In this document: positions 1 through 25,898 of the stretch, one piece after another
Position numbering within the stretch: the first letter of the stretch is position 1
How the letters are laid out: each line of letters starts with the position of its first letter
Assembly (NCBI RefSeq): GCF_013004695.1
Contig: NZ_JABEMG010000021.1
Span: forward strand, 1-47,819
Direction of reading: 5' to 3'
From: Promicromonospora citrea
Lineage (GTDB): Bacteria; Actinomycetota; Actinomycetes; Actinomycetales; Cellulomonadaceae
DNA length: 47,819 nt
Notes under the pieces: generated by a model
Told to the model about the DNA's origin: nothing
Database searches by the model: none
The model's input: only the letters and a program-made list of their open reading frames with translations
Made by a program: the position numbers and the translations under genes

Positions 1-120
1 GCAGACGTCGCCCTGGTGATGAACGGACGACCCCGCAAGGTCCTGGACTGGCACACACCCTACGAAGCAATGAGCAAGCTACTCTCAGCCGACACAACCG
101 GTGTTGCAACCACCGATTGA
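1..120 (+). CDS. IS30-family transposase, C-terminal fragment
   Basis: The open frame runs in from the window edge and ends at TGA 118-120, giving 39 residues. It contains NGRPRKVLDWHTPYEAM, the characteristic C-terminal end of IS30-family DDE transposases (N-RPRK-L-TP-E pattern). The family mediates cut or copy transposition of the element. Codon use is clearly less GC-biased than in the neighbouring genes (AAG, ACA, GAA, CAA, ATG-rich), as expected of an acquired element. The DDE catalytic residues lie upstream of the window, so whether the element is intact cannot be judged. The presumed right end of the element lies within about 10 bp of the stop and abuts the 16-bp repeat array that begins near 126. 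Confidence 0.85.
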   Translation, partial: ADVALVMNGRPRKVLDWHTPYEAMSKLLSADTTGVATTD

Positions 121-125
121 ATCCG

Positions 126-157
126 CCCTACCTCGCCAGGTGACTACCTCGGCGACG
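126..157. repeat. 16-bp repeat array 1 (two units, first one damaged)
   Basis: Two units of the GACTACCTCGCCACGT-type repeat lie between the IS30 fragment and the 3' end of the lipoprotein gene. The first unit is truncated (CCTACCTCGCCAGGT, having lost the leading GA) and the second reads GACTACCTCGGCGACG. On the minus strand the array begins about 10 nt after the lipoprotein stop with CGCCGAGGTAGTC. The same gene-proximal junction is seen at the arrays near 7883-7973 and 9503-9582. The truncation of the first unit at the transposase side suggests that the IS element inserted into, or deleted part of, a longer array. Confidence 0.8.
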
Positions 158-167
158 AGGGGCGGGG

Positions 168-1517
168 TCAGCCGGCCGTGGCGGCCTCGACCTCCTGGAC
201 GAACTGGGCCGCGGCCTCCTCGGGCGTGACCCGCTCGAAGAGCACGTCCGTGTTGAGGCGCTCCATGATGTCGGCCAGCTCCGCGGAGCCGTGCGGCGGC
301 ACCGGCGGGGTGTCCACGATCTCGTCCTCGATGTCCGCCATGAAGTCGGCGACCTTCTGGTCGGTCGGCGACAGGTCGTCGAGGATCGCCTCACGCACCT
401 CGGTGTTGGCGGGCAGGCCGCGGTCGGTCAGCATGATCTCGGCGGCCTCCTGCGAGTTGAGCAGGAAGTCCACGAACTTCGCGGCGGCCTGCGGGTACTC
501 GGTGTCGGCCGAGACGGAGTAGAACATCGCGGGCTTGTAGTACATCCCGGTCCGCTCGCCCTCGGACTCGCCCGGCAGCCGCAGCAGCTCGAGCTCGTGG
601 CCGGAGGACTCGGACAGGGCGCCGAGCTGGTTCGTCCACCAGACGCCCATCGCACCCTGGTTCGTGCCGAGCAGGCCGCCCTCCGGGCCCGCCGCCTGGT
701 ACTCGACCGTGCGCGAGGCGTCCGGCTGCCCGCCGCCCGCCATGAGGTCGAGCGACACCTGGAAGAAGTCCGCGACCGTCTCCTCGGAGACGCCCAGCTC
801 GCCCTCGGGAGTGAACAGCGCCTCGCCGCGCTGCCGCGCCATGACGTTGAGGCCCGCCTCGTTGAAGCCGTAGTCCTGCGTGCCCCAGACGCCGTCGCCC
901 GCCCCCTTCGCGACGGCGTTCGCCGTGCTGACGTAGTCCTCCCAGGTCCAGCTCTCGTCGTCCGGCAGCTCGACGCCGGCGTCGGCGAAGATCTCCGGGT
1001 CCGCCACCATCGCGTACGCATTGATGCCCGTCGGGATGCCGTACTGCGCGCCGTCGATCTGGCCGCCCGCCAGCACCGCGTCGTCGACCTTCGTGGTGTC
1101 GATCTCGAGCTCGCTCATGTCCGCGAGCACGTTCTTCGTCGCGTAGTCGGAGATGTAGCGCTCCTCCTGGGTGATGACGTCGGGGGTGTCGCCGGCCGCG
1201 ACCGACGTCGCGAGCTTGTCCCAGTAGCCGTCCCAGTCGGTGAAGTCGGGGACCACGGTGATGTCGGGGTTCTCGGCCTCGAACGCGTCGATGATCTGCT
1301 GCGTGGACTCGTGGCGGGTGTCGGAGCCCCACCAGGCGAACCGGATCTCGCAGGGGCAGTCCTGCGCCTCCGGCGGCGCCACGTCACCGCCCCCGCCCAG
1401 GCCGGAGTCGCCCCCGCCGCAGGCCGCGAGGGTCAGGGCGAGCGCCGCGACGCCCGCCGCGGGGACGGCGCGCGTCCTGCCGCGCCGTGGGGACCGTGCC
1501 GTTCCGGTGATGCTCAT
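168..1517 (-). CDS. CUT1 sugar ABC transporter substrate-binding lipoprotein
   Basis: This is the extracellular sugar-capture subunit of an ABC importer. The 449-residue product begins with an Arg-rich n-region, a hydrophobic stretch and a lipobox (LTLAAC, lipidated Cys33), followed by a Gly-rich linker and a family-1 solute-binding fold (FAWWGSDTRHESTQQIIDAFEAENPDI near residues 60-84). Length is normal for the family. The start is set by AAGGAGAG five bases upstream of the ATG. It is the third gene of a minus-strand operon, 39 bp after the second permease gene. The divergent LacI-type regulator at 3670 and the operators around 3518-3604 point to substrate-induced expression. The substrate is not readable from sequence. 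Confidence 0.93.
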   Translation of the reverse strand: MSITGTARSPRRGRTRAVPAAGVAALALTLAACGGGDSGLGGGGDVAPPEAQDCPCEIRFAWWGSDTRHESTQQIIDAFEAENPDITVVPDFTDWDGYWDKLATSVAAGDTPDVITQEERYISDYATKNVLADMSELEIDTTKVDDAVLAGGQIDGAQYGIPTGINAYAMVADPEIFADAGVELPDDESWTWEDYVSTANAVAKGAGDGVWGTQDYGFNEAGLNVMARQRGEALFTPEGELGVSEETVADFFQVSLDLMAGGGQPDASRTVEYQAAGPEGGLLGTNQGAMGVWWTNQLGALSESSGHELELLRLPGESEGERTGMYYKPAMFYSVSADTEYPQAAAKFVDFLLNSQEAAEIMLTDRGLPANTEVREAILDDLSPTDQKVADFMADIEDEIVDTPPVPPHGSAELADIMERLNTDVLFERVTPEEAAAQFVQEVEAATAG

Positions 1518-1556
1518 GTGCTCTCTCCTTCGGTGACGTCGTCGTCTCGTCGGTGA

Positions 1557-2513
1557 CTACTTGATGCCGGTGGTCGCGATGCCCTTGACCAGGTACTTCT
1601 GCCCGAACAGGAAGGCGATGAAGACGGGGACCAGCGACACGATCGACATGGCGAACAGGGACCCCCACGAGCTCTCGCCCGTCGCGTCGACGAACGTGCG
1701 CAGAGCGATCGGCACCGTGTACATCTCGGGCCGCGTGAGGAAGATCAGCTGGCTGAAGAAGTCGTTCCAGGTCCAGATGAAGGTGAAGATCGCGGTGGTG
1801 GCCAGCGCGGGCACCGACAGCGGCAGCATGATCTGCAGGTAGATGCGCAGGTGGTTCGCACCGTCGAGCGTCGCGGCCTCGTCCAGCTCGCGCGGGATGC
1901 CACGGAAGAACTGGACCATGAGGAAGATGAAGAACGCGTCGGTGGCCAGCAGCTTGGGCACGATGAGCGGCAGGAACGTGTTGATCCACTCGAGCTGGGA
2001 GAACAGCACGTACTGCGGCACGATCACGACGTGGATCGGCAGCATGATCGACATGAGCATGATCGCGAACCACAGCCTGCGGCCCCGGAACTCCAGCCGC
2101 GCGAAGGCGTAGGCCGCCATCGAGCACGAGACGAGGTTGCCGAGCAGCGACCCCAGCACGACGAGCGCCGAGTTGACGAGGTAGTGGCTGAACGGGTGCA
2201 GCAGCGCGTTCCAGCCGTCGGTGTAGTTGGTCAGGTCGATCTCGGTCGGGATGAGGCCCGGCTCGCGGAAGATGAGCGCGTTCGGCTTGAACGAGCTGGC
2301 CACCATCCACAGCAGCGGGTACAGCATCACGAACCCGAAGGCGATGAGGCCCGCGTGCTTGAGCACGGCGCCCACCCGGGCCCGCAGGCGCGGGCCGCGC
2401 GGGCGGACGGCGGTGCCCCTCGCCGGCCCGGGCGCGGCACGCCCGGCGGACGACGACGGTGCCGCGGCGGCCGGTGCCGGGACGGTCTGTGCGGTGGTCG
2501 AGGCGTCAGTCAT
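1557..2513 (-). CDS. CUT1 sugar ABC transporter permease (MalG-type)
   Basis: Inner-membrane permease of the importer, 318 residues with about six membrane segments. The cytoplasmic ATPase-contact loop is clear (EAATLDGANHLRIYLQIMLP, the EAA motif) and the end, KGIATTGIK, is typical of MalG-type subunits. The first 50 or so residues are an Ala/Pro/Arg-rich tail ahead of the first membrane helix (AGLIAFGFVMLYPLLWMVASS), longer than usual. The gene overlaps the upstream permease by 8 bp, so the two are translationally coupled. No ATPase gene is in the operon; a shared MsiK-type ATPase encoded elsewhere is the likely energiser. Confidence 0.93.
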   Translation of the reverse strand: MTDASTTAQTVPAPAAAAPSSSAGRAAPGPARGTAVRPRGPRLRARVGAVLKHAGLIAFGFVMLYPLLWMVASSFKPNALIFREPGLIPTEIDLTNYTDGWNALLHPFSHYLVNSALVVLGSLLGNLVSCSMAAYAFARLEFRGRRLWFAIMLMSIMLPIHVVIVPQYVLFSQLEWINTFLPLIVPKLLATDAFFIFLMVQFFRGIPRELDEAATLDGANHLRIYLQIMLPLSVPALATTAIFTFIWTWNDFFSQLIFLTRPEMYTVPIALRTFVDATGESSWGSLFAMSIVSLVPVFIAFLFGQKYLVKGIATTGIK

Positions 2514-3429
2514 CGTAGAAGACCCAGTACTTGGAGGCGAGGAAGTTGACGACCGTCATGCCGCCGATGATCAGCAGCAGGAACCAGGCCATGGCCGAGG
2601 CGTAGCCCATGTCGAGCGAGCCGAACCCCTTGAGGTAGAGGTAGAGCGTGTACAGCAGCGTCGAGTCCGACGGGCCGCCGTTGCCGCCGCTGACGACGAA
2701 CGCCCGCGTGAACGACTGGAACGCCTCGATGAGCTGCAGCACGAGGTTGAAGAACACGATCGGCGTGAGCAGCGGCAGCGTGATGGAGCGGAACTGACGC
2801 CACCGGCCGGCGCCGTCGATGGCGGCGGCCTCGTAGTACATCTGCGGGATCTGCCGCAGGCCCGCGAGGAAGATGACCATCGGCGCGCCGAACGTCCAGA
2901 CGTTGAGCGCCATGAGCGTGCCGAGCGCGTAGTCGGGGTGGGACACCCAGCCGTGCCCCGACACCCCGAACAGGCCCAGCACCTGGTTGACCAGGCCGTC
3001 GGCGCCGAAGATCTGCCGCCACAGGATCGCGATGGCGACCGAGCCGCCCAGCAGCGAGGGCAGGTAGTAGACCGAGCGGTAGAGCGCCAGGCCGCGCAGC
3101 CCCTTGTCGAGCAGCAGCGCGAGGCCCAGCGCGGCGGCGAGCTGCAGCGGCACCGACACGAGCACGTAGGTGAACGTCACGCCGAGCGAGCTGAGGAACC
3201 GCGGGTCGGCGAACATCCGCGTGAAGTTGTCCAGGCCGACCCACTCCGGCGGCGAGAGCAGGTCGTAGTCGGTGAACGACAGGTAGAGCGACGCACCCAT
3301 CGGGCCTGCCGTGACGAGCACGAGCCCCACGAACCACGGCGCGAGGAAGAACAGCGCCCAGCGGCCGTCCCCCTTCCTGCGCGGACTGACCTCCTGCCGC
3401 GTGCGGGAGAGCGCCTGGATCACTGACAC
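2506..3429 (-). CDS. CUT1 sugar ABC transporter permease (MalF-type)
   Basis: First gene of the importer operon, encoding the second membrane subunit. It has six predicted membrane helices (first at WALFFLAPWFVGLVLVTAG) and an EAA loop (YEAAAIDGAGRWRQFRSITLP). I place the start at GTG 3429, giving 307 residues, because a GGGGGTGG ribosome-binding sequence precedes it. A second in-frame GTG two codons later (3423) is an alternative. The frame stays open for another 141 bp upstream, but that stretch holds the operators and is not membrane-protein-like, so I leave it out. The promoter region is shared with the divergent LacI-DUF6807 gene. Confidence 0.9.
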   Translation of the reverse strand: MSVIQALSRTRQEVSPRRKGDGRWALFFLAPWFVGLVLVTAGPMGASLYLSFTDYDLLSPPEWVGLDNFTRMFADPRFLSSLGVTFTYVLVSVPLQLAAALGLALLLDKGLRGLALYRSVYYLPSLLGGSVAIAILWRQIFGADGLVNQVLGLFGVSGHGWVSHPDYALGTLMALNVWTFGAPMVIFLAGLRQIPQMYYEAAAIDGAGRWRQFRSITLPLLTPIVFFNLVLQLIEAFQSFTRAFVVSGGNGGPSDSTLLYTLYLYLKGFGSLDMGYASAMAWFLLLIIGGMTVVNFLASKYWVFYDD

Positions 3430-3517
3430 GGGACCACCCCCGCGCGGGCAGGAGCACTGGTCGGATGGCGCATCGCGTAGTCCTCCGGATCGTCGTCGAC
3501 CCCCGGCCCTCCTCGGT

Positions 3518-3604
3518 GAGAAACCGGTCTCTGGTGGAGGAACGTACCACATGAGGAACCGGTTTCCCATGGTGTACCGTCACCTCGGGAAACCGGTACC
3601 GGCC
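3518..3604. promoter_or_regulatory. Divergent promoter region with three LacI-type operators
   Basis: Three copies of an AACCGGT-centred palindrome are evenly spaced. The centres are at about 3525 (GAGAAACCGGTCTC), 3560 (ATGAGGAACCGGTTTCCCAT) and 3594 (GGGAAACCGGTACCGG), that is 35 and 34 bp apart. A central CpG flanked by AAAC/GTTT is the usual design of LacI-family operators. A plausible minus-strand promoter (TGGGAA, 17 bp, TACGTT at 3569-3541) drives the importer operon and is straddled by the middle operator. Plus-strand initiation for the regulator is possible from TACCGT at 3575-3580. The regulator at 3670 is the obvious candidate ligand-controlled repressor. Confidence 0.75.
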
Positions 3605-3669
3605 CGCGCGACGCCAACGACGGCGCCACGCCCGCGCCGTCGGCCGGACACGTGACGGACGGAGTGCAG

Positions 3670-5700
3670 ATGGTCAGCCGCAGCCCACGGGACGCAGGTC
3701 AGCGCCCCGGTCAGCGCCGGGTCGCCACGATCGGCGACGTCGCGGCCGCCGCCGGGGTCTCCCGGGCGACCGTCTCGCGCGTCATGAACGGCCGCAGCAC
3801 GGTCGACGCCGCGATCGCCGAGCGCGTGCGCGACGCCGCCGCGGCCCTCAGCTACCGCCCCAGCAACGCCGCGCGCAGCCTCGCGCTCGGTCGCACCCAG
3901 ACCGTCGCGCTCGTGGTGCCCGACCTCGGCAACCCGGTGTTCCAGCAGATCCTGCGCGGCGTCATGGCTGGTGCGGCCGAGGACGGCTACCGCGTGCTCG
4001 TCGCGGACACCGCGGAGGACGACCAGCAGGAGGGCGCCATCGCGCTCGAGGCGCGGATGCGCTGCGACGCGCTCGTGCTCGTCTCGCCCCGCATCGGCGA
4101 CGCCGAGCTCGCCGCGCTGGTCGCCGACGTCGAGCCCGTCGTCCTGGTCAACCGCGACGCCGGCGGCGCGGCGCCGAGCCTCGTCGTCGACTACGAGGAC
4201 GCCGCGCTCCAGGTGGTCGAGCACCTCGTGGCCCTCGGGCACCGCCGCCTGGTCTACCTCGGTGGCCCCGTGCGCAGCGCGTCGGACGAGATGCGCCGGG
4301 CCGGGCTGGCCCGGGCCCGTGAGCAGCACACCGACCTCGAGATCGTCGACCTGCCCGCCGGGCCGGACATCCAGGCCGGCCACGCCGCGGCGCCCGCCGT
4401 GCTCGCCACGCGCGCCACGGCCGCCGTCGCCTTCAACGACCTCGTGGCGTTCGGCCTGCTCGCCGGACTCAACGAGGCGGGGGTCGCCGTCCCGGCCGAC
4501 ATCTCCGTCGCCGGGTTCGACGACATCGAGCTGTCCCGCTACGCCACGCCCGCCCTGACCACCGTCGCCGTGCCGCAGGCCGAGCTCGGCCGGCACGCCT
4601 GGAGGGAGCTGCACGCCGTGATCGACGACGACGCCCACCCCGCCCGCTCCGCCCGGTTCACGCCGAGCCTCGAGGTGCGCGGCAGCACCGGGCCCGTGCC
4701 GCAGGGCCCCGAGCGCGTGCACGTGACCGACGACGGCGTGCCCGCCGACCGCCCCGAGCCCGCCCGGACCGCACCGGCCGTCACGACGGCGCCCGTATGG
4801 CGCCTCCCGGCGGCCGACGGCGACGCGATCGTGCTGATCGGCGGCGACGACGTCGAGCTCGCGCGCCACGACCCCGGCGACCGCATGCCGCAGGTGCACG
4901 CGCGCCGCCCCTACCTGCACCCCGTGCACACCCTCGGGGGCGTTCCGCTCACCGACGTCAGCCCCGTGGACCACCGGCACCACTACGGCGTCGGCATCGC
5001 GGTGCCCGACGTGAACGGCACGAGCCACTGGGGCGGCCGCACGTTCATCGAGGACGTCGGCCCGACGCTGCTGAAGAACCACGGGCGGCAGGTCTCGCGC
5101 GGCGCGCGCGTGGAGGCCGACGCCGGGACCCTCGTCGAGGACGTGCTGTGGTCCGACGAGCACGGCGTCCCGCAGCTCCGCGAGGACCGCCTGTTGACCG
5201 CCCGCCTGCTGTCCGCGACCGCGGACGCCCCGGCCGGCTGGGTGCTCGACTGGCGCTCGACCCTGCACGCCGAGCACGACCCGCTCGAGATCCGCTCCCC
5301 CGCCACCAACGGCCGGCCGGGCGCCGGCTACGGCGGCCTGTTCTGGCGGCTGCCGATCGCCGAGAGCACCACCGTGCTCTCCGCCGCGGGCACCGGCGAG
5401 ACCCGTGCGCACGGCAGCACGTCGCCCTGGGTCGCGTTCGTGCAGCGCCAGGGCGGCCGGTCCACGACGCTGCTGCTCGTCCAGCCCGGGCAGGTGCGGC
5501 CGTGGTTCCTGCGGTCGGCCGAGTACCCGGGCGCGTGCCCGGCGCTCGCCTGGGACGCACCCCTGCTCGTGCCCGACGGCGGCACCGTGCGGCTCGACCT
5601 GTCGGCCGCGCTGCTCGACGCGGCGCTCACGGGCGAGCAGGCCGCCGCGCTGGCCGGGCGGCTCACGGGCGTCTCCGCCGTCGCGGGCGGCCGCCGGTGA
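3670..5700 (+). CDS. LacI-family regulator fused to a DUF6807/PmoA-like domain
   Basis: A 676-residue two-part protein. Residues about 18-70 are a LacI helix-turn-helix with hinge (ATIGDVAAAAGVSRATVSRVMNG). Residues about 76-340 are the periplasmic-binding-protein-like sensor (DISVAGFDDIELSRYATPALTTV near 277-299). After a Pro/Ala-rich linker, residues about 376-670 match the DUF6807 (PmoA) family: RRPYLHPVHTLGGVPLTD, then DHRHHYGVG and SHWGGRTFIEDVG. Ordinary LacI proteins end near residue 340, so the C-terminal half is a true fusion with no stop or frameshift between. DUF6807 proteins occur in sugar-catabolic loci but their chemistry is unsettled. ATG 3670 is chosen because GGAG lies five bases upstream; an in-frame GTG at 3652 is less likely. 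Confidence 0.88.
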   Translation: MVSRSPRDAGQRPGQRRVATIGDVAAAAGVSRATVSRVMNGRSTVDAAIAERVRDAAAALSYRPSNAARSLALGRTQTVALVVPDLGNPVFQQILRGVMAGAAEDGYRVLVADTAEDDQQEGAIALEARMRCDALVLVSPRIGDAELAALVADVEPVVLVNRDAGGAAPSLVVDYEDAALQVVEHLVALGHRRLVYLGGPVRSASDEMRRAGLARAREQHTDLEIVDLPAGPDIQAGHAAAPAVLATRATAAVAFNDLVAFGLLAGLNEAGVAVPADISVAGFDDIELSRYATPALTTVAVPQAELGRHAWRELHAVIDDDAHPARSARFTPSLEVRGSTGPVPQGPERVHVTDDGVPADRPEPARTAPAVTTAPVWRLPAADGDAIVLIGGDDVELARHDPGDRMPQVHARRPYLHPVHTLGGVPLTDVSPVDHRHHYGVGIAVPDVNGTSHWGGRTFIEDVGPTLLKNHGRQVSRGARVEADAGTLVEDVLWSDEHGVPQLREDRLLTARLLSATADAPAGWVLDWRSTLHAEHDPLEIRSPATNGRPGAGYGGLFWRLPIAESTTVLSAAGTGETRAHGSTSPWVAFVQRQGGRSTTLLLVQPGQVRPWFLRSAEYPGACPALAWDAPLLVPDGGTVRLDLSAALLDAALTGEQAAALAGRLTGVSAVAGGRR

Positions 5701-6866
5701 GCGCACCGCGGGTCGCCGTCGTCGGCATCCACGGGCACGGGGCCTCGCACCTGCGCACGCTGGCCGAGCTGGCGTCGCGGGGGCTGGCGCGGCTGAGCGC
5801 CGTCGTCGACCCGCGAGAGCCCGCGGCCGCGGACGTCCCGTGGTTCGCGACGCTCGGCGACCTGCTCTCGGCGGGACCGGCGGCCCTGCCCGACGTCGTC
5901 GTGCTGGCCACGCCGATCCACACGCACCTGCCGCTCGCGCGCGCCGCCATGGAGGCGGGCATCGACGTGCTGCTCGAGAAGCCGACCGCCGCGTCGCTGG
6001 CCGAGCACGGCGAGCTCGTCGCCGTCGCCGAGCGCACCGGGCGCCTGTGCCAGGTCGGGTTCCAGACCTTCGGCTCGCACGCGCTGCCCGCCGTCGCCGA
6101 CATGGTCGCGCGCGGCGAGATCGGCCGGGTCACCGGCGTCGGCGCGGTCGGCACGTGGGTCCGCACGGCGGCATACTGGGGGCGCTCGCCGTGGGCGGGC
6201 AGGCGGCGCCTCGGCGACCGCGCCGTCGTGGACGGCGTCGTGACCAACCCGCTCGCGCACGCCGTCGCCTCGGCGCTGTGGGTGGGCGGCGCGCGGGCCG
6301 CGACCGACGTCGCCTCGGTGCACACCGACCTGTGGCGCGCCAACCCGATCGAGGCCGACGACACGTCGTCGCTGCGCGTCGTCGGCACGGGCGGCACCCG
6401 CTACGGGTTCGGGCTGACGCTCTGCGCGGCGCGGCGCACGCCCGCGCGCGTGATCGTGCAGGGCACGGGCGGCGAGATCGAGCTCGAGTACGAGCACGAC
6501 CTCGTGCGGCTGCGCTCGGGGCGCGTGACGGCGGAGAAGCGGTACGGGCGCACGGGCCTCCTGGAGAACCTGCTGCGCGCCCGGTCCGGCGAGCCCCTGC
6601 TGTGCGACGTGCGGGACACCGGCGCGTTCATGCGCGTGCTCGACGCCGTCCGCGCGGCACCCGACCCCGCACCGGTCGCCGACGCCTTCGTCGACTGGGT
6701 GGACGAGGGCGCCGAGGCCGCCGGACCCGGCAACCCCGCCGGCGACACGCGGCATCCCGTGGTGCGCGACGTCGCCGCGTGGTGCGAGCGCGCGGCGCGC
6801 GAGCAGCGGACCTTCACGGAGCTCGGTGCCCCGTGGACGCTCGCCGCGCCCGCGCGCGGGACGTGA
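5697..6866 (+). CDS. Gfo/Idh/MocA-family NAD(P)-dependent oxidoreductase
   Basis: A 389-residue oxidoreductase starting at GTG 5697, which overlaps the stop of the LacI-DUF6807 gene (GTGA). The N-terminal Rossmann domain reads RVAVVGIHGHGASHLRTL, and the family signature LLEKPTAAS, carrying the catalytic Lys of the EKP motif, lies near residue 100. The C-terminal substrate domain has normal length. Members oxidise or reduce hydroxyls of sugars, inositols or sugar acids. Tight coupling to the DUF6807 fusion gene suggests that both act on the same imported carbohydrate. The glycine pattern at the nucleotide site (GIHGHG) is slightly unusual. Confidence 0.88.
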   Translation: MSAPRVAVVGIHGHGASHLRTLAELASRGLARLSAVVDPREPAAADVPWFATLGDLLSAGPAALPDVVVLATPIHTHLPLARAAMEAGIDVLLEKPTAASLAEHGELVAVAERTGRLCQVGFQTFGSHALPAVADMVARGEIGRVTGVGAVGTWVRTAAYWGRSPWAGRRRLGDRAVVDGVVTNPLAHAVASALWVGGARAATDVASVHTDLWRANPIEADDTSSLRVVGTGGTRYGFGLTLCAARRTPARVIVQGTGGEIELEYEHDLVRLRSGRVTAEKRYGRTGLLENLLRARSGEPLLCDVRDTGAFMRVLDAVRAAPDPAPVADAFVDWVDEGAEAAGPGNPAGDTRHPVVRDVAAWCERAAREQRTFTELGAPWTLAAPARGT

Positions 6867-6878
6867 CAGGGTGCGTGC

Positions 6879-7889
6879 GTGCTCCCCGTCCTGACCGCCA
6901 TCGGTGCGATGGCGTGCGTGGTCGCCCTCGGTGGGGTGGTCCAGCGCACGGGCCTGCTCGCGAGGCGCGGCCTGCCGGGCGGTGCCAACACCCCTGACGA
7001 CGGCGCGGGCGCCCGGCACGTGCTCGCCACGCTGTCCTTCACGATCTGCGCGCCCGCGCTGATGTTCTCGACGCTCGCCTCGACCGACCTCGCGCACGTG
7101 CTCTCGCGTGGCGCCGCCGTCACCTGGGCGACGACCGGCGCGCTCGGCCTCGTCACCGCGGTGGTGGCCCGGTGGCTCCTGCGCCTGCCCGCCGGCCCGG
7201 CCGCCGTCACCACGCTGGCCGCCGTGTACGTCAACGGCGGCAACATCGGCATCCCGCTCGCGGTCTACCTGTTCGACGACGCGCTCGCCGTCGTACCGAC
7301 CCTGCTGTTCCAGCTCCTCGTGCTCGCGCCGCTCGCGCTGTCGGTGCTCGACCGGGCCACGGGACGCGCGCCGGCGCCGTCGGGCGTGCGGTCGCTCGGG
7401 CACGTGCTGCTCGCCGCGTTCCGGAACCCGATCACGGTGGGTACGGTCGCCGGCCTGCTCGTGGCGGTGGGGAGCGAGCTGACGGGCGCGCACCTGCCCG
7501 ACGTCGTGCTGCTGCCGTTCGACCTGATCGGCGCCGCCGCGCCGCCGCTCGGCCTGCTGACGTTCGGCATGACGCTCGCCGTGCCGCTCCCGCCCGCCGA
7601 CCTCAGCGCGTCCGGTTCCCGGTGGCCGGTGAGCCGCGTGATCGTGCTCGCCGTCCTGGTGCGCAACCTGCTGCACCCGCTGGCGGCCTGGGCGCTGGGC
7701 TCGGCGCTGGGCCTGGACGGCACGGCGCTCGCCCTCGTGGTGACGATGGCGGCGCTGCCCACGGCGGTGAACGTCACGACGTACGCGACGCGCTACGGGG
7801 TGTTCGACGGTGTCGCGGCGCGCGCGACCGTCTGGACGACGGCGCTGTGCGTCCCGGTGCTGATCACCATCGGCGCCCTGCCGAGGTAG
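6879..7889 (+). CDS. AEC-family transporter (auxin efflux carrier-like permease)
   Basis: A hydrophobic 336-residue membrane protein with about ten predicted helices in two halves. It contains the small-residue motif VNGGNIGIPLAVYLF near residue 110, typical of the AEC family, whose bacterial members export or import small organic acids and other metabolites. It starts at GTG 6879, 12 bp after the oxidoreductase gene, with an AGGG sequence upstream, and probably belongs to the same transcript. It may move a product of the oxidoreductase or DUF6807 step. The last codons and the TAG stop (7887-7889) are supplied by the first 16-bp unit of the repeat array, so the C-terminus may have been altered by arrival of that array. 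Confidence 0.85.
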   Translation: MLPVLTAIGAMACVVALGGVVQRTGLLARRGLPGGANTPDDGAGARHVLATLSFTICAPALMFSTLASTDLAHVLSRGAAVTWATTGALGLVTAVVARWLLRLPAGPAAVTTLAAVYVNGGNIGIPLAVYLFDDALAVVPTLLFQLLVLAPLALSVLDRATGRAPAPSGVRSLGHVLLAAFRNPITVGTVAGLLVAVGSELTGAHLPDVVLLPFDLIGAAAPPLGLLTFGMTLAVPLPPADLSASGSRWPVSRVIVLAVLVRNLLHPLAAWALGSALGLDGTALALVVTMAALPTAVNVTTYATRYGVFDGVAARATVWTTALCVPVLITIGALPR

Positions 7890-7973
7890 TCACGTGGCGA
7901 GGTAGTCACGTGGCGAGGTAGTCACGGGGCGAGGTAGTCGTGACTACCTCGCCAGGTGACTACCTCGGCACCG
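7883..7973. repeat. 16-bp repeat array 2, head-to-head at a convergent gene pair
   Basis: Units of GAGGTAGTCACGTGGC occupy 7883-7898, 7899-7914 and 7915-7930 (the last with one change), followed by GAGGTAGTC at 7931. The array then flips: GACTACCTCGCCAGGT at 7942-7957 and GACTACCTCGGCACCG at 7958-7973. The centre, GAGGTAGTCGTGACTACCTC, is almost a perfect 20-bp palindrome, and transcripts from either side can fold extensively. Each array end facing a gene starts GCCGAGGTAGTC, which here is true for both the AEC gene and the opposing oxidoreductase gene. A bidirectional transcription terminator or 3'-end stabiliser is the simplest reading. It is not a CRISPR array because there are no unique spacers. 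Confidence 0.85.
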
Positions 7974-7978
7974 CGAGG

Positions 7979-9403
7979 TCAGATGCCCAGGGACAGATCG
8001 GCGATACGGACCGGGGCGCCGGTCTCCAGCGAGCGGTTGCCCGCGTAGCCCACCGACGACGCGCGGACGCCGTCGACGTAGCCGGCCGCGCGGGCCAGCG
8101 GGTCGCGCTCGGCGGACGGCGCGAAGACGTCGGCCAGCAGGAGGGCGTCGCCGCCTCCGTGACCGCCGCCGCCGCGCACGATCGGCCGCTCCTCGGCGCG
8201 CTCCCAGTGCCGCTGGACGACGAGCCGCTCGCCCGTCGGCCGCACGGGATCGTGCTCGAACACCTCCGTGAGACTGGGGTCGAGGATCGCGACGCCGTCC
8301 TCGCCGAACTCGACCGAGCCACGCTCGACGACCTCGAGCTCCGCCCGTCCACGCGTCCCGTTGACCACCACGCGGTACCCCTCCCACGGCGAGTGCGCCG
8401 TGAGCGAGTACGTCATGAGGGCGCCGCCCGCGTACTCGACCACGAGCCCGAGCGTGTCCTCCGTGGTGATGCCCGGGTCGAACACGGACCGGTTCCGCAC
8501 GTAGCCGTCCACGGCCTGGGCCTCGGAACCGTACAGCGTGGACAGCCACTCGTTCTTCTCGACCGACAGCGACCACGGGTCGATGCCGCGCTCGGTCAGC
8601 GCGCGTTCGGCGTCGGTGGGCTCGTAGCCGGTCTCGTGCGCGCCGTCGTCGCCGTAGAAGCGCCGCCCGCCCGACGCGAAGACCCGCTCCGGCACGCCGT
8701 CGATCCACCAGTTGACGAGGTCGAAGTGGTGGCTCGACTTGTGCACGAGCAAGCCGCCGTTGTTGACCTTCTCGCGGTGCCAGCGGCGGAAGTAGTCGGC
8801 GCCGTGCACGGTGTCGAGGGCCCAGTCGAAGTGGACCGACAGCACGCGGCCGATCTCACCGCTCGCGACGACCTCGCGCAGCGCGCTGTTGCGCGGCGAG
8901 TAGCGGTAGTTGAACGTCGTGACGAGGTCACGGCCGGTCTCGGCGACGGCGTCGACGATCTGCCGGGCCTGCTCCGGGTGCGCCGCGATCGGCTTCTCGA
9001 CGACGACGTCGGCGCCCGCGCGCAGGGCACGGGTGACCAGGTCGGCGTGCGTCCGGTCGACGGACGTGACAATCACCCGGTCGACCGCCTGCTCGTCGAG
9101 CGCCTTCTCGAGGTCGTCAGGGTGGTAGACGGGCCGGGTCCCGCCGAGCACCGCGGCGACACGGGCCTCGTAGGCGGCCGCACGCACGGGGTTGGGCTCG
9201 ACCCAGGCGACGATCTCGCCGTCGGGCGCGTGTGTCCCGATCAGCGCGTCGACGTACATCGAGGCGCGGTGCCCGGTGCCGACGACGGCGTACCGGCGAC
9301 GCTGCTCGGGGAGCGGGCCCGATGGCGGCACGGGTGCCGAGGTGGGACCGGTGATCGGCTCGGTGGTGGGGCCGGGGGTCGGCGCGGGGGTCGGCTCGGG
9401 CAT
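7979..9403 (-). CDS. Gfo/Idh/MocA-family oxidoreductase
   Basis: A 474-residue NAD(P)-dependent oxidoreductase. A low-complexity Pro/Thr-rich leader (about 35 residues, PEPTPAPTPGPTTEP) precedes the Rossmann fold (RYAVVGTGHRASMYVDALIG). The EKPIAAHPEQ motif carries the family lysine, and the C-terminal domain contains a W-W-D stretch and HHFDLVNWWIDG. Total length suits the longer secondary-metabolism or sugar subgroup. The chosen ATG at 9403 follows GGAG at a slightly long distance (10 nt). The frame could be extended to 9472, but that would translate the promoter and operator. It is monocistronic, with its own promoter upstream, and converges on the AEC gene. Confidence 0.86.
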   Translation of the reverse strand: MPEPTPAPTPGPTTEPITGPTSAPVPPSGPLPEQRRRYAVVGTGHRASMYVDALIGTHAPDGEIVAWVEPNPVRAAAYEARVAAVLGGTRPVYHPDDLEKALDEQAVDRVIVTSVDRTHADLVTRALRAGADVVVEKPIAAHPEQARQIVDAVAETGRDLVTTFNYRYSPRNSALREVVASGEIGRVLSVHFDWALDTVHGADYFRRWHREKVNNGGLLVHKSSHHFDLVNWWIDGVPERVFASGGRRFYGDDGAHETGYEPTDAERALTERGIDPWSLSVEKNEWLSTLYGSEAQAVDGYVRNRSVFDPGITTEDTLGLVVEYAGGALMTYSLTAHSPWEGYRVVVNGTRGRAELEVVERGSVEFGEDGVAILDPSLTEVFEHDPVRPTGERLVVQRHWERAEERPIVRGGGGHGGGDALLLADVFAPSAERDPLARAAGYVDGVRASSVGYAGNRSLETGAPVRIADLSLGI

Positions 9404-9442
9404 CGGTGGTGAGCTCCTTCGGTCGTCGTCGACGTCGCCGCA

Positions 9443-9471
9443 ACGATACGACGCCCGGAAAGCGCTGTCCA
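9443..9471 (-). promoter_or_regulatory. Promoter with overlapping LacI-type operator
   Basis: On the minus strand TGGACA (9471-9466) and TATCGT (9448-9443) are separated by 17 bp and precede the oxidoreductase gene. The palindrome GGAAAGCGCTGTCC at 9457-9470, with 6 of 7 paired positions around a central GC, overlaps the -35 element and spacer. This is the arrangement of a LacI-family repressor site. It resembles the 22508-22523 site (GGGAAAGCGCATTCCC) more than the AACCGGT sites at 3518-3604, so a different LacI regulator, possibly that at 21395, may control this gene. Confidence 0.65.
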
Positions 9472-9502
9472 TGAGCCGGCACGCCGGAGTCGCCAGCCGG
9501 AC

Positions 9503-9582
9503 GACTACCTCGTCACGTGACTACCTGGCCACGTGACTACCTCGCCACATGACTACCTCGCCACATGACTACCTCGGCGAGA
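9503..9582. repeat. 16-bp repeat array 3 (five tandem units)
   Basis: Five contiguous 16-bp units start at 9503, 9519, 9535, 9551 and 9567: GACTACCTCGTCACGT, GACTACCTGGCCACGT, GACTACCTCGCCACAT twice, and GACTACCTCGGCGAGA. The array lies 11 bp beyond the stop of the fabH-type gene (minus strand) and upstream of the oxidoreductase promoter at 9471. All units share one orientation, matching the single gene that ends here. The exact tandem duplication of the third and fourth units shows recent expansion or contraction by slippage or recombination. Confidence 0.88.
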
Positions 9583-9593
9583 GGGCGGGCGGG

Positions 9594-10634
9594 TCAGCGT
9601 TCCGGGGTCAGGGCCACCTGGCCCGCCCAGGCGAAGCCGCCGCCGAAGCCGAAGAGCAGCGCGGGCACGCCCGCGGGGATCTTGCCCGCGTGCCACCACT
9701 TGGACAGCCCCAGCGGGATCGATGCGGCGGACGTGTTGCCCGACTCCGTGATGTCTGTGACCACGACCTTGCCCTCGAGACCGAGCGCCTTGGCGAGCGG
9801 CTCGATGATCCGCAGGTTGGCCTGGTGGGCGACGAGCACCTCGATGTCGTCGAGGCTCAGGCCCGAGCGGTCCACGATGTCCCGCGCGCGGTCGGCGGCC
9901 CGGGTGATCGCCCACTTGAACACGGCACGGCCGTCCTGCTGGAACTTCACCTCCGGCACCTCGATCCGCACGGCGGGCGTCAGCTCCGGCTCGGTGCCCC
10001 ACGTGACCGGTCCGACGCCCGGGGTGTCGGCGGCCTGGAGCACCGCGGCGCCCGCGCCGTCGGCGGTCAGGATGCACGTCGAGCGGTCCGTCCAGTCGGT
10101 GTACGCCGTGAGCTTCTCGGCGCCGATCACCACGGCCGTGCGCGCGGAGCCGGCGCGGATCGCCTGGTCGGCCAGGCCGACGGCGTGCGCGAACCCCGAG
10201 CACGCGGTGTTGACGTCCAGCGCGGCGGGCCCGACGAGCCCCCGCAGGTCCGGCGCCTCCTCGCCCTCGGGCGTGGAGGCGCCGGGCTGCACGCCCGTGC
10301 GCAGCGCGTACGCGACCCGGCCCGCCGTGTTCGGCGACCGGTCCTCCGCCGTGGTGGTCGCGACGACCACGAGGTCGACCGTGTCGGCCGCCACGCCGGC
10401 GTCCGCGAGCGCGTGCTCGGCCGCCGCGGTGGCCATGTCGGCGACCGTGACGTCGTCGGCGGCCACGTGCCGCGTGACGATGCCGGTGCGGGACCGGATC
10501 CACTCGTCGTTGGTCTCGACCAGCCGGGCGATGTCCTCGTTGGTGAGGGTCTTCGCCGGCTGGTGGTGTCCCAGGCCGACGATGCGGGAGCCGGCGGCAC
10601 CGGCGGGGTGGGTCAGTACGGGCGACGTAACCAT
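9594..10634 (-). CDS. fabH: 3-oxoacyl-ACP synthase III (FabH-type)
   Basis: A 346-residue thiolase-fold condensing enzyme that would join an acyl-CoA to malonyl-ACP. The catalytic triad is complete: Cys145 (VNTACSGFAHAVG), His270 (VAHQAN) and Asn300 (ESGNTSAASIP). The C-terminal glycine-rich loop (FGFGGGFAWAG) is present. Compared with E. coli FabH there is an insertion of roughly 20 residues just before the active-site cysteine (about 112-136, charged and Pro/Glu-rich). No acpP, fabD or fabF is adjacent, so this is a stand-alone copy, either housekeeping or dedicated. The ATG at 10634 lies four bases after the upstream SprT-like stop with no strong ribosome-binding site of its own, implying translational coupling. 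Confidence 0.9.
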   Translation of the reverse strand: MVTSPVLTHPAGAAGSRIVGLGHHQPAKTLTNEDIARLVETNDEWIRSRTGIVTRHVAADDVTVADMATAAAEHALADAGVAADTVDLVVVATTTAEDRSPNTAGRVAYALRTGVQPGASTPEGEEAPDLRGLVGPAALDVNTACSGFAHAVGLADQAIRAGSARTAVVIGAEKLTAYTDWTDRSTCILTADGAGAAVLQAADTPGVGPVTWGTEPELTPAVRIEVPEVKFQQDGRAVFKWAITRAADRARDIVDRSGLSLDDIEVLVAHQANLRIIEPLAKALGLEGKVVVTDITESGNTSAASIPLGLSKWWHAGKIPAGVPALLFGFGGGFAWAGQVALTPER

Positions 10635-10638
10635 GAGG

Positions 10639-11253
10639 TCAACGTAGCGCTCCCAGGTCGAAGGGTTCGACGGTGAGACCAGGAACACGTTCGCGCGCGG
10701 CCCGCGCGATCCGCTCCTCGGCACCTGGACCGGTGCGCGGGACGGCACCGACCTCGCGGGCCGCGCCGCGCAGCTGCGCGTCGTACCGCTCCCCCATCGC
10801 GGCGTTGCGGCCCTTGTAGGTCCACGCGACGAGGTGCGCGAGCGCGAACCGCGGCGCGCAGCGGCGGCAGGACATGAGGCCGGAGGGCCGGCGGAACCGC
10901 GTCGTGCGGTGCCCCGCGGGGCAGGCGCCGACCCACGGCCCGTCGATGGTCGGCGCCGACGGGTCGACGCACCGCCGCCCCGAGCTGCCGATGCGGACCG
11001 CCACCTCGCGCCACACCGGTCCGTGCTTGGCGGCCGGCCCCGCGAGCGCGTGCGCGACCTCGTGCAGGATCGTCTCCCGCACCTCCTGCTCGTCGTGGAT
11101 GCGGGTCAGCGGCGCCGACAGGCTGATCTGCTGCGCGCGGTAATTGCACATCCCGGCGCGCCGCACGGCGTCGTCGAACTCGAAGGTCCAGGCCTTCAGG
11201 CCGTGCTGGTCCATGAGCTCGCGCGCCAGGCGCGAGGCGGCGACAAGGTTCAT
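10639..11253 (-). CDS. SprT-like zinc metalloprotein
   Basis: A 204-residue protein with the zinc-protease motif HEVAHAL at residues 64-70, preceded by TIL and followed by a third histidine (KHGPVW, His77). It then carries a C-terminal zinc-ribbon-like part (GACPAGH near 109-115, SCRRC at 128-132). This is the SprT/SPRTN-like fold, and eukaryotic relatives cleave DNA-protein crosslinks. Bacterial SprT proteins are poorly characterised. The ATG at 11253 is preceded by GGGGG; the open frame continues 28 codons upstream without a good start. It is the first gene of a two-gene unit with the FabH-type gene. Confidence 0.85.
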   Translation of the reverse strand: MNLVAASRLARELMDQHGLKAWTFEFDDAVRRAGMCNYRAQQISLSAPLTRIHDEQEVRETILHEVAHALAGPAAKHGPVWREVAVRIGSSGRRCVDPSAPTIDGPWVGACPAGHRTTRFRRPSGLMSCRRCAPRFALAHLVAWTYKGRNAAMGERYDAQLRGAAREVGAVPRTGPGAEERIARAARERVPGLTVEPFDLGALR

Positions 11254-25771: not shown

Positions 25772-25826
25772 GCGGGGCCGGTGCGGCCGGGGCGGCGCTC
25801 CGGCCGCGCGGCGCCTGATGGTCTTC

Positions 25827-25880
25827 GAGACCGACGGTTCTCGGCTCTGAGCGGTCGCAGAGCCGAGAACCGTCGGTCTC
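25827..25880. terminator. Perfect 23-bp hairpin between convergent operons
   Basis: Positions 25827-25849 and 25858-25880 are exact 23-bp reverse complements (arm begins GAGACCGACGGTTCTCGG) around an 8-nt loop. It lies between the convergent isomerase (stop 25771) and DUF624 (stop 25899) genes and is symmetric, so it can terminate transcription from both sides. There is no T tract, as is common in high-GC actinomycetes. The perfection and length exceed those of the other hairpins in the window. Confidence 0.88.
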
Positions 25881-25898
25881 AGGGGCGATCGGTCGGCG

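What the first reader, a model, noticed from the sequence alone, without database searches (positions are those of the whole stretch)
126..9582. A 16-bp repeat (GAGGTAGTCACGTGGC) forms tandem arrays tied to gene 3' ends
Three arrays (126-157, 7883-7973, 9503-9582) use the same 16-bp unit. Every array end that faces a gene lies within about 11 bp of the stop codon, or contains it, and starts with the same junction GCCGAGGTAGTC reading away from the gene. At the convergent pair the array is inverted in the middle so that both genes get the same orientation. Orientation tied to transcription direction argues for an RNA-level role such as termination, 3'-end protection or a protein-binding tag. 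I do not recognise it as a described element. All copies I found are in the first 10 kb, so it may be a local, mobile or clade-specific family.
Basis: partly seen in the sequence, partly recalled or inferred. Interest (0 to 1): 0.82.

Follow-up and report, generated by a model that had tools for sequence, protein, structure and literature searches.

The report
Modular palindromes at bacterial gene ends
Dozens of genes of this bacterium end in a palindrome built from copies of a 16-letter repeat, which probably folds into a hairpin that ends transcription, and whose core word differs between related species at the same gene ends.

Summary
The arrays are real, genome-wide and placed at gene ends, but they are palindromes, not direction tags. 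The host genome has 125 exact GAGGTAGTCACSTGGC copies against 0 for the reversed control. Of 74 multi-unit arrays examined, 45 run forward-then-reverse (F..R), 29 are one-armed, none runs R..F. Flanking 3' ends lie within 30 bp in 87 of 103 cases, gene starts in 2 of 35. Two-arm gaps fold at z below -3 in 41 of 41, one-arm gaps in 5 of 19.

Relatives carry the same 16-nt architecture in another dialect (GARRTAGAAC), beyond chance at the same gene pairs, including window array 7883-7973. At two gene pairs followed across the genus, 25 of 25 measured gaps hold a strong hairpin, only 6 of them as arrays of two or more units. Loop covariation is clear in G011, weaker in G000 and G004, absent in G008. 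An IS30-like element inserts into the unit.

Best reading: modular terminator or 3'-end hairpins, homogenised genome-wide. RNA ends untested.

The parts
1..127 (+). End of an IS30-like insertion sequence (transposase C-terminus, stop at 118-120; terminal motif TTGAATCCGCC at 117-127) inserted into array 1
   Evidence: tblastn of the 39-aa tail: 3 of the 5 listed plasmid records are annotated IS30 family there, 1 IS3, 1 none; Pfam gave no match
128..153 (-). Array 1: one full R unit and part of another, truncated by the IS; faces the stop of the gene 168-1517(-)
6879..7889 (+). Mem_trans transporter gene; its TAG stop lies inside the first F unit
7880..7969 (.). Array 2: two-arm palindrome, 4 F units then 2 R units, filling almost the whole gap between convergent genes; the orthologous gap of G011 holds an array in the AAC dialect
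   Evidence: MFE -70.4 kcal/mol (+) and -61 (-), z -10.6 and -9.5 against dinucleotide shuffles
7979..9403 (-). GFO/IDH/MocA oxidoreductase gene ending 12 bp from the last R core of array 2
9503..9578 (-). Array 3: one-arm array of five R units (one with a mismatch in the core), 3' of the gene 9594-10688(-), upstream of the start of 7979-9403(-)
   Evidence: absent from the orthologous gap of G004, which has no hairpin either
9594..10688 (-). 3-oxoacyl-ACP synthase III-like gene whose 3' end carries array 3
25772..25898 (.). Ordinary long hairpin between convergent genes in this window (z -7.4), at the gap where G011 has an AAC-dialect array

Best explanation
The arrays are modular gene-end hairpins: palindromes made of n forward and m reverse copies of a 16-nt unit (core GAGGTAG plus TCA or AAC, then a variable 6-nt linker) around a small central stem-loop. 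Transcribed from either side of a convergent gene pair, the F arm pairs with the R arm into a long stem just after the stop codon, and acts as a mostly bidirectional intrinsic terminator and/or a block to 3' exonucleases. Shown: anatomy, position, predicted fold, loop covariation in part of the genomes, and interchange with ordinary hairpins at orthologous gene pairs. Inferred: that RNA ends there. Arms grow and shrink by unit duplication, and units are homogenised across the genome, which yields a species dialect. One-arm arrays would be decayed or half elements.
For: Order is F..R in 45 of 45 two-arm arrays in G000, 35 of 35 arrays in G004 and 27 of 30 in G008, the other 3 one-armed. In stretches chosen around arrays, 39 of 143 convergent, 20 of 537 tandem and 6 of 141 divergent gaps carry one. 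Flanking 3' ends lie within 30 bp in 87 of 103 (G000), 49 of 56 (G004), 45 of 50 (G008) and 7 of 10 (G012); starts in 2 of 35, 1 of 14, 2 of 10 and 0 of 2. Two-arm gaps have z below -3 in 41 of 41 (mononucleotide shuffles). At the C26 and C255 gene pairs all 25 measured gaps (13 and 12 genomes) have z of -3.7 or lower, 6 as arrays of two or more units and 19 mainly as other hairpins. Of 12 measured array-less gaps orthologous to an array gap, 8 have z below -3, one of them a degenerate array. First-four-base loop pairs against between-array shuffles: G011 98/124 vs 52.5, G004 89/112 vs 70.2, G000 84/156 vs 64.6, at most 1 of 5000 shuffles reaching each; ten bases, G011 160/180 vs 96.4. Adjacent linkers are identical in 40 of 151 vs 15.8 shuffled. 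Streptomyces Term-seq terminators have the most stable and longest hairpins, few U, and significant covariation (PMC12207403, passages).
Against: No RNA data. No U-tract: 0 to 2 T in the 10 nt after the last R core in 56 of 56 arrays that have an R unit. 29 of 74 G000 arrays are one-armed; 5 of 19 of their gaps fold at z below -3, and two of those five rows are the two halves of one L148 gap. Loop covariation is mixed: G008 47/104 vs 42.9, not significant; over ten bases G000 95/160 vs 84.4 (118 of 5000), G004 31/60 vs 30.4 and G008 84/180 vs 94.2; an earlier G000 count over five pairs with other loop limits gave 92/170 vs 86.1 (276 of 2000). Mirrored units are not more alike in register than within-array shuffles. 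Complementarity alone does not explain one core word per genome. Six of 66 placed arrays lie in divergent gaps, without a tRNA in those five loci. Four of the 12 measured array-less gaps have no strong fold, among them G004 at the array 3 site, z 0.1.
Confidence: 0.5

Rival explanations
1. REP/BIME-like nomadic repeats with no host role: they spread by copying or recombination and survive at gene 3' ends, above all between convergent genes, because nothing there is damaged.
For: High copy number, intergenic bias and presence/absence differences at orthologous gaps (4 of 12 G000 array gaps lack one in G004 by the strict criterion). Other repeat families occupy the same gene end in relatives. 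One-arm arrays exist.
Against: No RAYT-type transposase (PF01797) in 20 of 20 genomes searched, while the control search rang in 5 of 14. No target duplication or clean empty site seen by eye in the sites printed. Positions are conserved beyond the class background: 8 of 12 (expected 2.25, P 1e-4) and 5 of 6 (expected 1.14, P 2e-4). A hairpin is present at both followed gene pairs in all 25 measured gaps, with or without an array.
Confidence: 0.27
2. Binding array for a DNA- or RNA-binding protein that reads the GAGGTAG core at gene ends (termination roadblock, nucleoid or supercoiling factor); the TCA/AAC dialects track a change in its specificity.
For: Core nearly constant against a linker of 45 forms in 264 (the cores counted were chosen with at most one mismatch, so their constancy is partly by construction). 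Fixed 16-nt spacing, 264 of 269. One-arm arrays keep the core. Units are almost purely one dialect per genome in the stretches read: G000 364:0, G004 139:1, G008 2:151.
Against: No candidate protein was sought or found. Palindromic order and loop covariation are not needed for simple binding. G005 holds both dialects in different arrays.
Confidence: 0.17
3. One reading: an oriented RNA tag whose direction follows transcription.
For: Outer units at convergent pairs read away from both genes.
Against: One-arm arrays in tandem gaps split 3 to 3; 14 of 20 tandem-gap arrays carry both orientations.
Confidence: 0.04

Closest known systems
Intrinsic terminators of GC-rich Actinobacteria (long stable hairpins, few U), incl. 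bidirectional ones between convergent genes
   Same: Position after the stop codon, stable hairpin, interchange with plain hairpins at orthologous gene pairs, low U, loop covariation in some genomes
   Different: Stem built from several copies of one 16-nt unit shared across the genome, in species dialects; some arrays have one arm only
REP / BIME elements, incl. GTAG-tagged REPs with RAYT transposases (PMC3733652, passages incl. part of the abstract; PMC12306157, one passage)
   Same: High-copy extragenic repeats, mostly between unidirectional and convergent genes; GTAG occurs in the core; REPs are targets of IS elements (PMC1525189, abstract)
   Different: The unit itself is not a hairpin, GTAG lies in the paired stem rather than unpaired at one end, arrays are block-inverted rather than alternating, no RAYT found
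Foldback-type elements with inverted repeats made of subrepeats (recalled, not looked up)
   Same: Inverted arms composed of tandem subrepeats
   Different: Bacterial, roughly 30-210 bp in the arrays printed, no coding partner seen, placed at stop codons

Membership tests
Intrinsic transcription terminator | GC-rich stem-loop directly 3' of a gene | tested here: met
   Met for two-arm arrays (z below -3 in 41 of 41 gaps) and by position (87 of 103); not met by most one-arm arrays (5 of 19)
Intrinsic transcription terminator | U-tract after the stem | tested here: not met
   0-2 T in 10 nt after the last R core, 56 of 56 arrays. U is already low (3-4 in 10) in Streptomyces terminators
Intrinsic transcription terminator | RNA 3' ends at the element | not testable with these tools
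   no RNA data
Intrinsic transcription terminator | Compensatory changes in the stem-loop | tested here: inconclusive
   Clear in G011; on four pairs also G000 and G004; not over ten bases in G004, weak in G000; not in G008; not in an earlier G000 count. Paralogous copies, so not independent events
REP / BIME | 20-40 bp palindromic unit | tested here: not met
   The 16-nt unit is not a hairpin; the palindrome spans two blocks
REP / BIME | Unpaired GTAG at one end of the hairpin and a RAYT in the genome | tested here: not met
   GTAG is inside the paired core in array 2; PF01797 absent in 20 of 20 genomes
REP / BIME | High copy number, extragenic, biased to 3' ends | tested here: met
Rfam RNA family | match above gathering score | tested here: not met
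   0 matches in window 1-11000
Transposable element (MITE-like) | target-site duplication and clean empty site | tested here: inconclusive
   none seen by eye in the arrays and the orthologous pairs; no systematic count

The most novel reading that the evidence does not exclude
A genome-wide gene-end code: one trans-acting factor reads the GAGGTAG core at the 3' ends of dozens of genes, and its specificity has flipped between TCA and AAC at least twice within one genus, so that the arrays were rewritten while staying at the same gene ends, even between the sister genomes G000 and G011.
Probability: 0.17. Interest if true: 0.85.

Novelty: new variant of a known kind. Interest (0 to 1): 0.62.

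Why it matters
If the hairpin reading is right, a bacterial genus builds part of its gene-end hairpins from interchangeable 16-nt modules, and the same sites can swap between a module array and a plain hairpin. That gives a natural series for asking how many stem modules termination needs. The genome-wide dialects, differing between sister genomes at orthologous sites, pose a sharp question on concerted evolution in bacteria: whether recombination or a co-evolving factor rewrites many loci together.

Tried and rejected
RAYT/REP origin: PF01797 absent in 20 genomes. Rfam family: none in window 1-11000. Viral origin: the TC tandem pattern (the only one scanned) has 0 exact matches in viral contigs. 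tRNA 3' ends as an explanation of divergent-gap arrays: no tRNA in the five such loci, L131, L134, L144, L158, L170; of two more loci scanned, L132 has three tRNAs, the nearest about 235 bp from its array, and L136 none. Oriented tag: rejected. Register-specific pairing of mirrored units: linkers in mirror position are identical in 14 of 71 cases vs 6.1 shuffled, but not more than within-array shuffles, so not supported. A ribosome-binding or minigene reading of the unit (GAGG...GTG) was considered and dropped because many linkers lack GTG. Literature: exact 16-mer in 0 papers; 12-mer fragments in 27 papers, of which 10 were listed and by title concern unrelated subjects; topic searches (listings and abstract starts only) showed no title describing such arrays in Promicromonospora or relatives. 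The raw tallies count some gaps twice; one search is the recount used here.
Full report
Observation. The three arrays exist where stated. With up to 3 mismatches the 16-mer has 9 places in the window against 0.70 expected. They are samples of a genome-wide family: GAGGTAGTCACSTGGC has 125 exact copies in the 4.96-Mb host genome and the junction GCCGAGGTAGTC 110, against 0 and 1 for the reversed patterns.

Material. I fetched 60 stretches of the host genome around listed copies, which with the window make 0.998 Mb. Ten of the 110 junction places were not listed and not pursued. Genes were called by a codon-usage script of my own. One hundred and seven clusters with at least one exact GAGGTAGTC were found. 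Seventy-four have two or more exact cores and are the arrays counted below; of the other 33, 25 are inside called genes and look like chance copies.

Anatomy. Same-strand neighbours are 16 bp apart in 264 of 269 cases. Forty-five arrays run F..R, 18 are F only, 11 R only, none R..F. Each core position is constant in 97% or more of 390 cores except position 3 (366 of 390), but these cores were chosen with at most one mismatch, so part of that is by construction; the 7-nt linker, not so chosen, shows 45 forms in 264, ACGTGGC (63) and ACCTGGC (48) the commonest. Adjacent linkers are identical in 40 of 151 cases against 15.8 in shuffles, a sign of local unit duplication. The window's array 2 folds at -70.4 (+) and -61 (-) kcal/mol, z -10.6 and -9.5; its one-arm array 3, folded alone, reaches z -4.0 through its self-complementary linkers, but the whole gap that holds it does not stand out (z 0.1).

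Position. Sixty-six of 74 arrays were placed between two called genes; the other 8 lie at contig ends or inside a called gene. In these array-centred stretches 39 of 143 convergent, 20 of 537 tandem and 6 of 141 divergent gaps carry an array. Flanking 3' ends are within 30 bp in 87 of 103 cases, flanking starts in 2 of 35; G004 gives 49 of 56 and 1 of 14, G008 45 of 50 and 2 of 10, G012 7 of 10 and 0 of 2.

Dialects. In the 13 genomes of the genus a sister unit, GARRTAGAAC plus a similar linker and the same 16-nt period, is found: tandem matches G008 139, G011 110, G006 43, G005 31, G010 20, G003 5, one each in G004, G012 and G009, none in G000, G001, G002, G007. The word GAGGTAGTCAC has 242 matches in G000, 67 in G004, 14 in G012, 11 in G005, 7 in G011 and 4 in G008. 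In the stretches read, unit counts TC:AAC are G000 364:0, G004 139:1, G008 2:151; these stretches were chosen by one or the other word, so the whole-genome counts are the fairer evidence. G005 has arrays of both kinds. On a two-gene tree of the 13 genomes G000 (TC) is sister to G011 (AAC), support 1.000, and G004 with G012 (TC) falls elsewhere; counted by hand, parsimony needs at least two dialect changes.

Same sites, different sequence. Of 12 G000 array gaps whose orthologous gap was in hand in G004, 8 carry an array there (expected 2.25, P 1e-4); the four without are L144, L145, L118 (whose G004 gap by eye holds a degenerate array) and window 9503. For G008 it is 5 of 6 (expected 1.14, P 2e-4), in the other dialect; the six other comparisons made give 2 of 2, 4 of 5, 4 of 4, 7 of 9, 4 of 5 and 4 of 6 (background taken per gap class from array-rich stretches). 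Of 11 G011 array loci examined, 7 had their G000 gene pair in hand: 4 hold arrays in G000, among them window 7883-7973, and 3 do not. All seven G011 arrays lie between convergent genes, and against the G000 convergent background (39 of 143) 4 of 7 is only weak evidence by itself.

Hairpins with or without arrays. At the C26 gene pair 13 of 13 genomes, and at the C255 pair 12 of 12 measured (the G008 gap could not be measured), have a gap that folds at z -3.7 or lower; 6 of these 25 are arrays of two or more units (2 TC, 4 AAC), one holds a single AAC unit and 18 have other hairpins. At C255 the host itself has a plain terminator-like hairpin as well as the array. Of 12 measured array-less gaps orthologous to an array gap, 8 have z below -3, one of them the degenerate array; window 25772-25898 is one (z -7.4). 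The four weak ones are G004 L246 (-1.5), G008 L290 (-2.2), G000 L136 (-2.3, where another called gene lies between the two genes and a 16-pair stem is predicted near the right gene) and G004 at the array 3 site (0.1); one more gap was too short to measure.

Fold and covariation. Two-arm gaps have z below -3 in 41 of 41 cases, one-arm gaps in 5 of 19, with the two halves of one L148 gap counted among those five (mononucleotide shuffles, as). Among convergent gaps of 30-300 bp, 54% of 52 without arrays reach z below -3 against 80% of the 35 with arrays, one-arm ones included. First-four-base loop pairs exceed between-array shuffles in G011 (98/124 vs 52.5; 31 of 34 loops usable), G004 (89/112 vs 70.2; 28 of 31) and G000 (84/156 vs 64.6; 39 of 41), not in G008 (47/104 vs 42.9; 26 of 26). 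Over ten bases only G011 is clear (160/180 vs 96.4); G000 gives 95/160 vs 84.4 (118 of 5000), G004 31/60 vs 30.4, G008 84/180 vs 94.2. An earlier G000 count with other loop limits was not significant (92/170 vs 86.1). Mirrored units are not more alike in register than within-array shuffles. After the last R core there are 0-2 T in 10 nt (56 of 56), so no classical U-tract; Streptomyces terminators are also U-poor, long and stable (PMC12207403, passages), and in Bacillus cereus terminators shared by convergent genes are more conserved than those of co-oriented genes (PMC5381666, passages).

Beyond the genus. The TC tandem pattern is in 1 of 396 genomes of the order, G000 itself; no other genome of the genus was in that draw. 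The inverted pattern is in 5 of 396. Nine loci (8 from those genomes other than G000, 1 from G014) were read: of the 8 with called genes on both sides, all have a left gene ending 13-98 bp upstream and 6 are convergent; several show GGTAGTC units about 19-20 nt apart (genes called with the host's codon table). Whether these are relatives or look-alikes is open.

IS target. The IS-end motif TTGAATCCGCC occurs 9 times in the host genome; 8 lie within about 130 bp of a contig end and abut an array unit at the same point, GAGG^TAG, implying a 3-bp duplication, and the ninth is elsewhere. The two sides of single insertions were not paired. The window's own first 127 bases are such an end. The 39-aa tail matches 2066 plasmid records; of the 5 listed 3 are annotated IS30 family, 1 IS3, 1 none. 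REP elements are known IS targets (PMC1525189, abstract).

Judgement. Modular gene-end hairpins, most likely bidirectional terminators or 3'-end protectors, at 0.5. The strongest points against are the 29 one-arm arrays, the missing U-tract, the uneven covariation and the absence of any RNA data. What complementarity alone cannot explain is the single core word per genome and its switch between sister genomes; homogenising recombination or a co-evolving reader protein would each do, and I cannot tell them apart here. The host assembly has 290 contigs, so array lengths may be affected by assembly.

Noticed in passing
window 1-127; L323-L330: An IS30-like element inserts at one exact point of the repeat unit (GAGG^TAG) in 8 of 9 places of its end motif; these junctions lie at contig ends of the assembly, including the start of this window.
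   Followed up: partly
L114 5416 region and L144 2023 region; G011 L305, L309: A shared type of array centre (GGCCGGAGCGCTGATCAGCGCTCCGGCC-like, TGATCA or TGGTCA in the middle) recurs in G000 and G011, with compensatory variants in G011.
   Followed up: partly
L194, L197, L203, L205: Another repeat (GCCTGAGCCTGCGGTTCCGC...CACCCTGCGCTGCACCTCCGGC type) sits at the same gene end in other species of the genus, suggesting several gene-end repeat families.
   Followed up: no
L182 1501-1522: In G119 a canonical A-tract/T-tract terminator just after a tRNA-like sequence has GAGGTAGTC/GACTACCTC in its stem; possibly chance.
   Followed up: no
L186, L189, L190, L192: Palindromes with repeated GGTAGTC units about 19-20 nt apart at gene ends in two genomes outside the genus.
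   Followed up: partly
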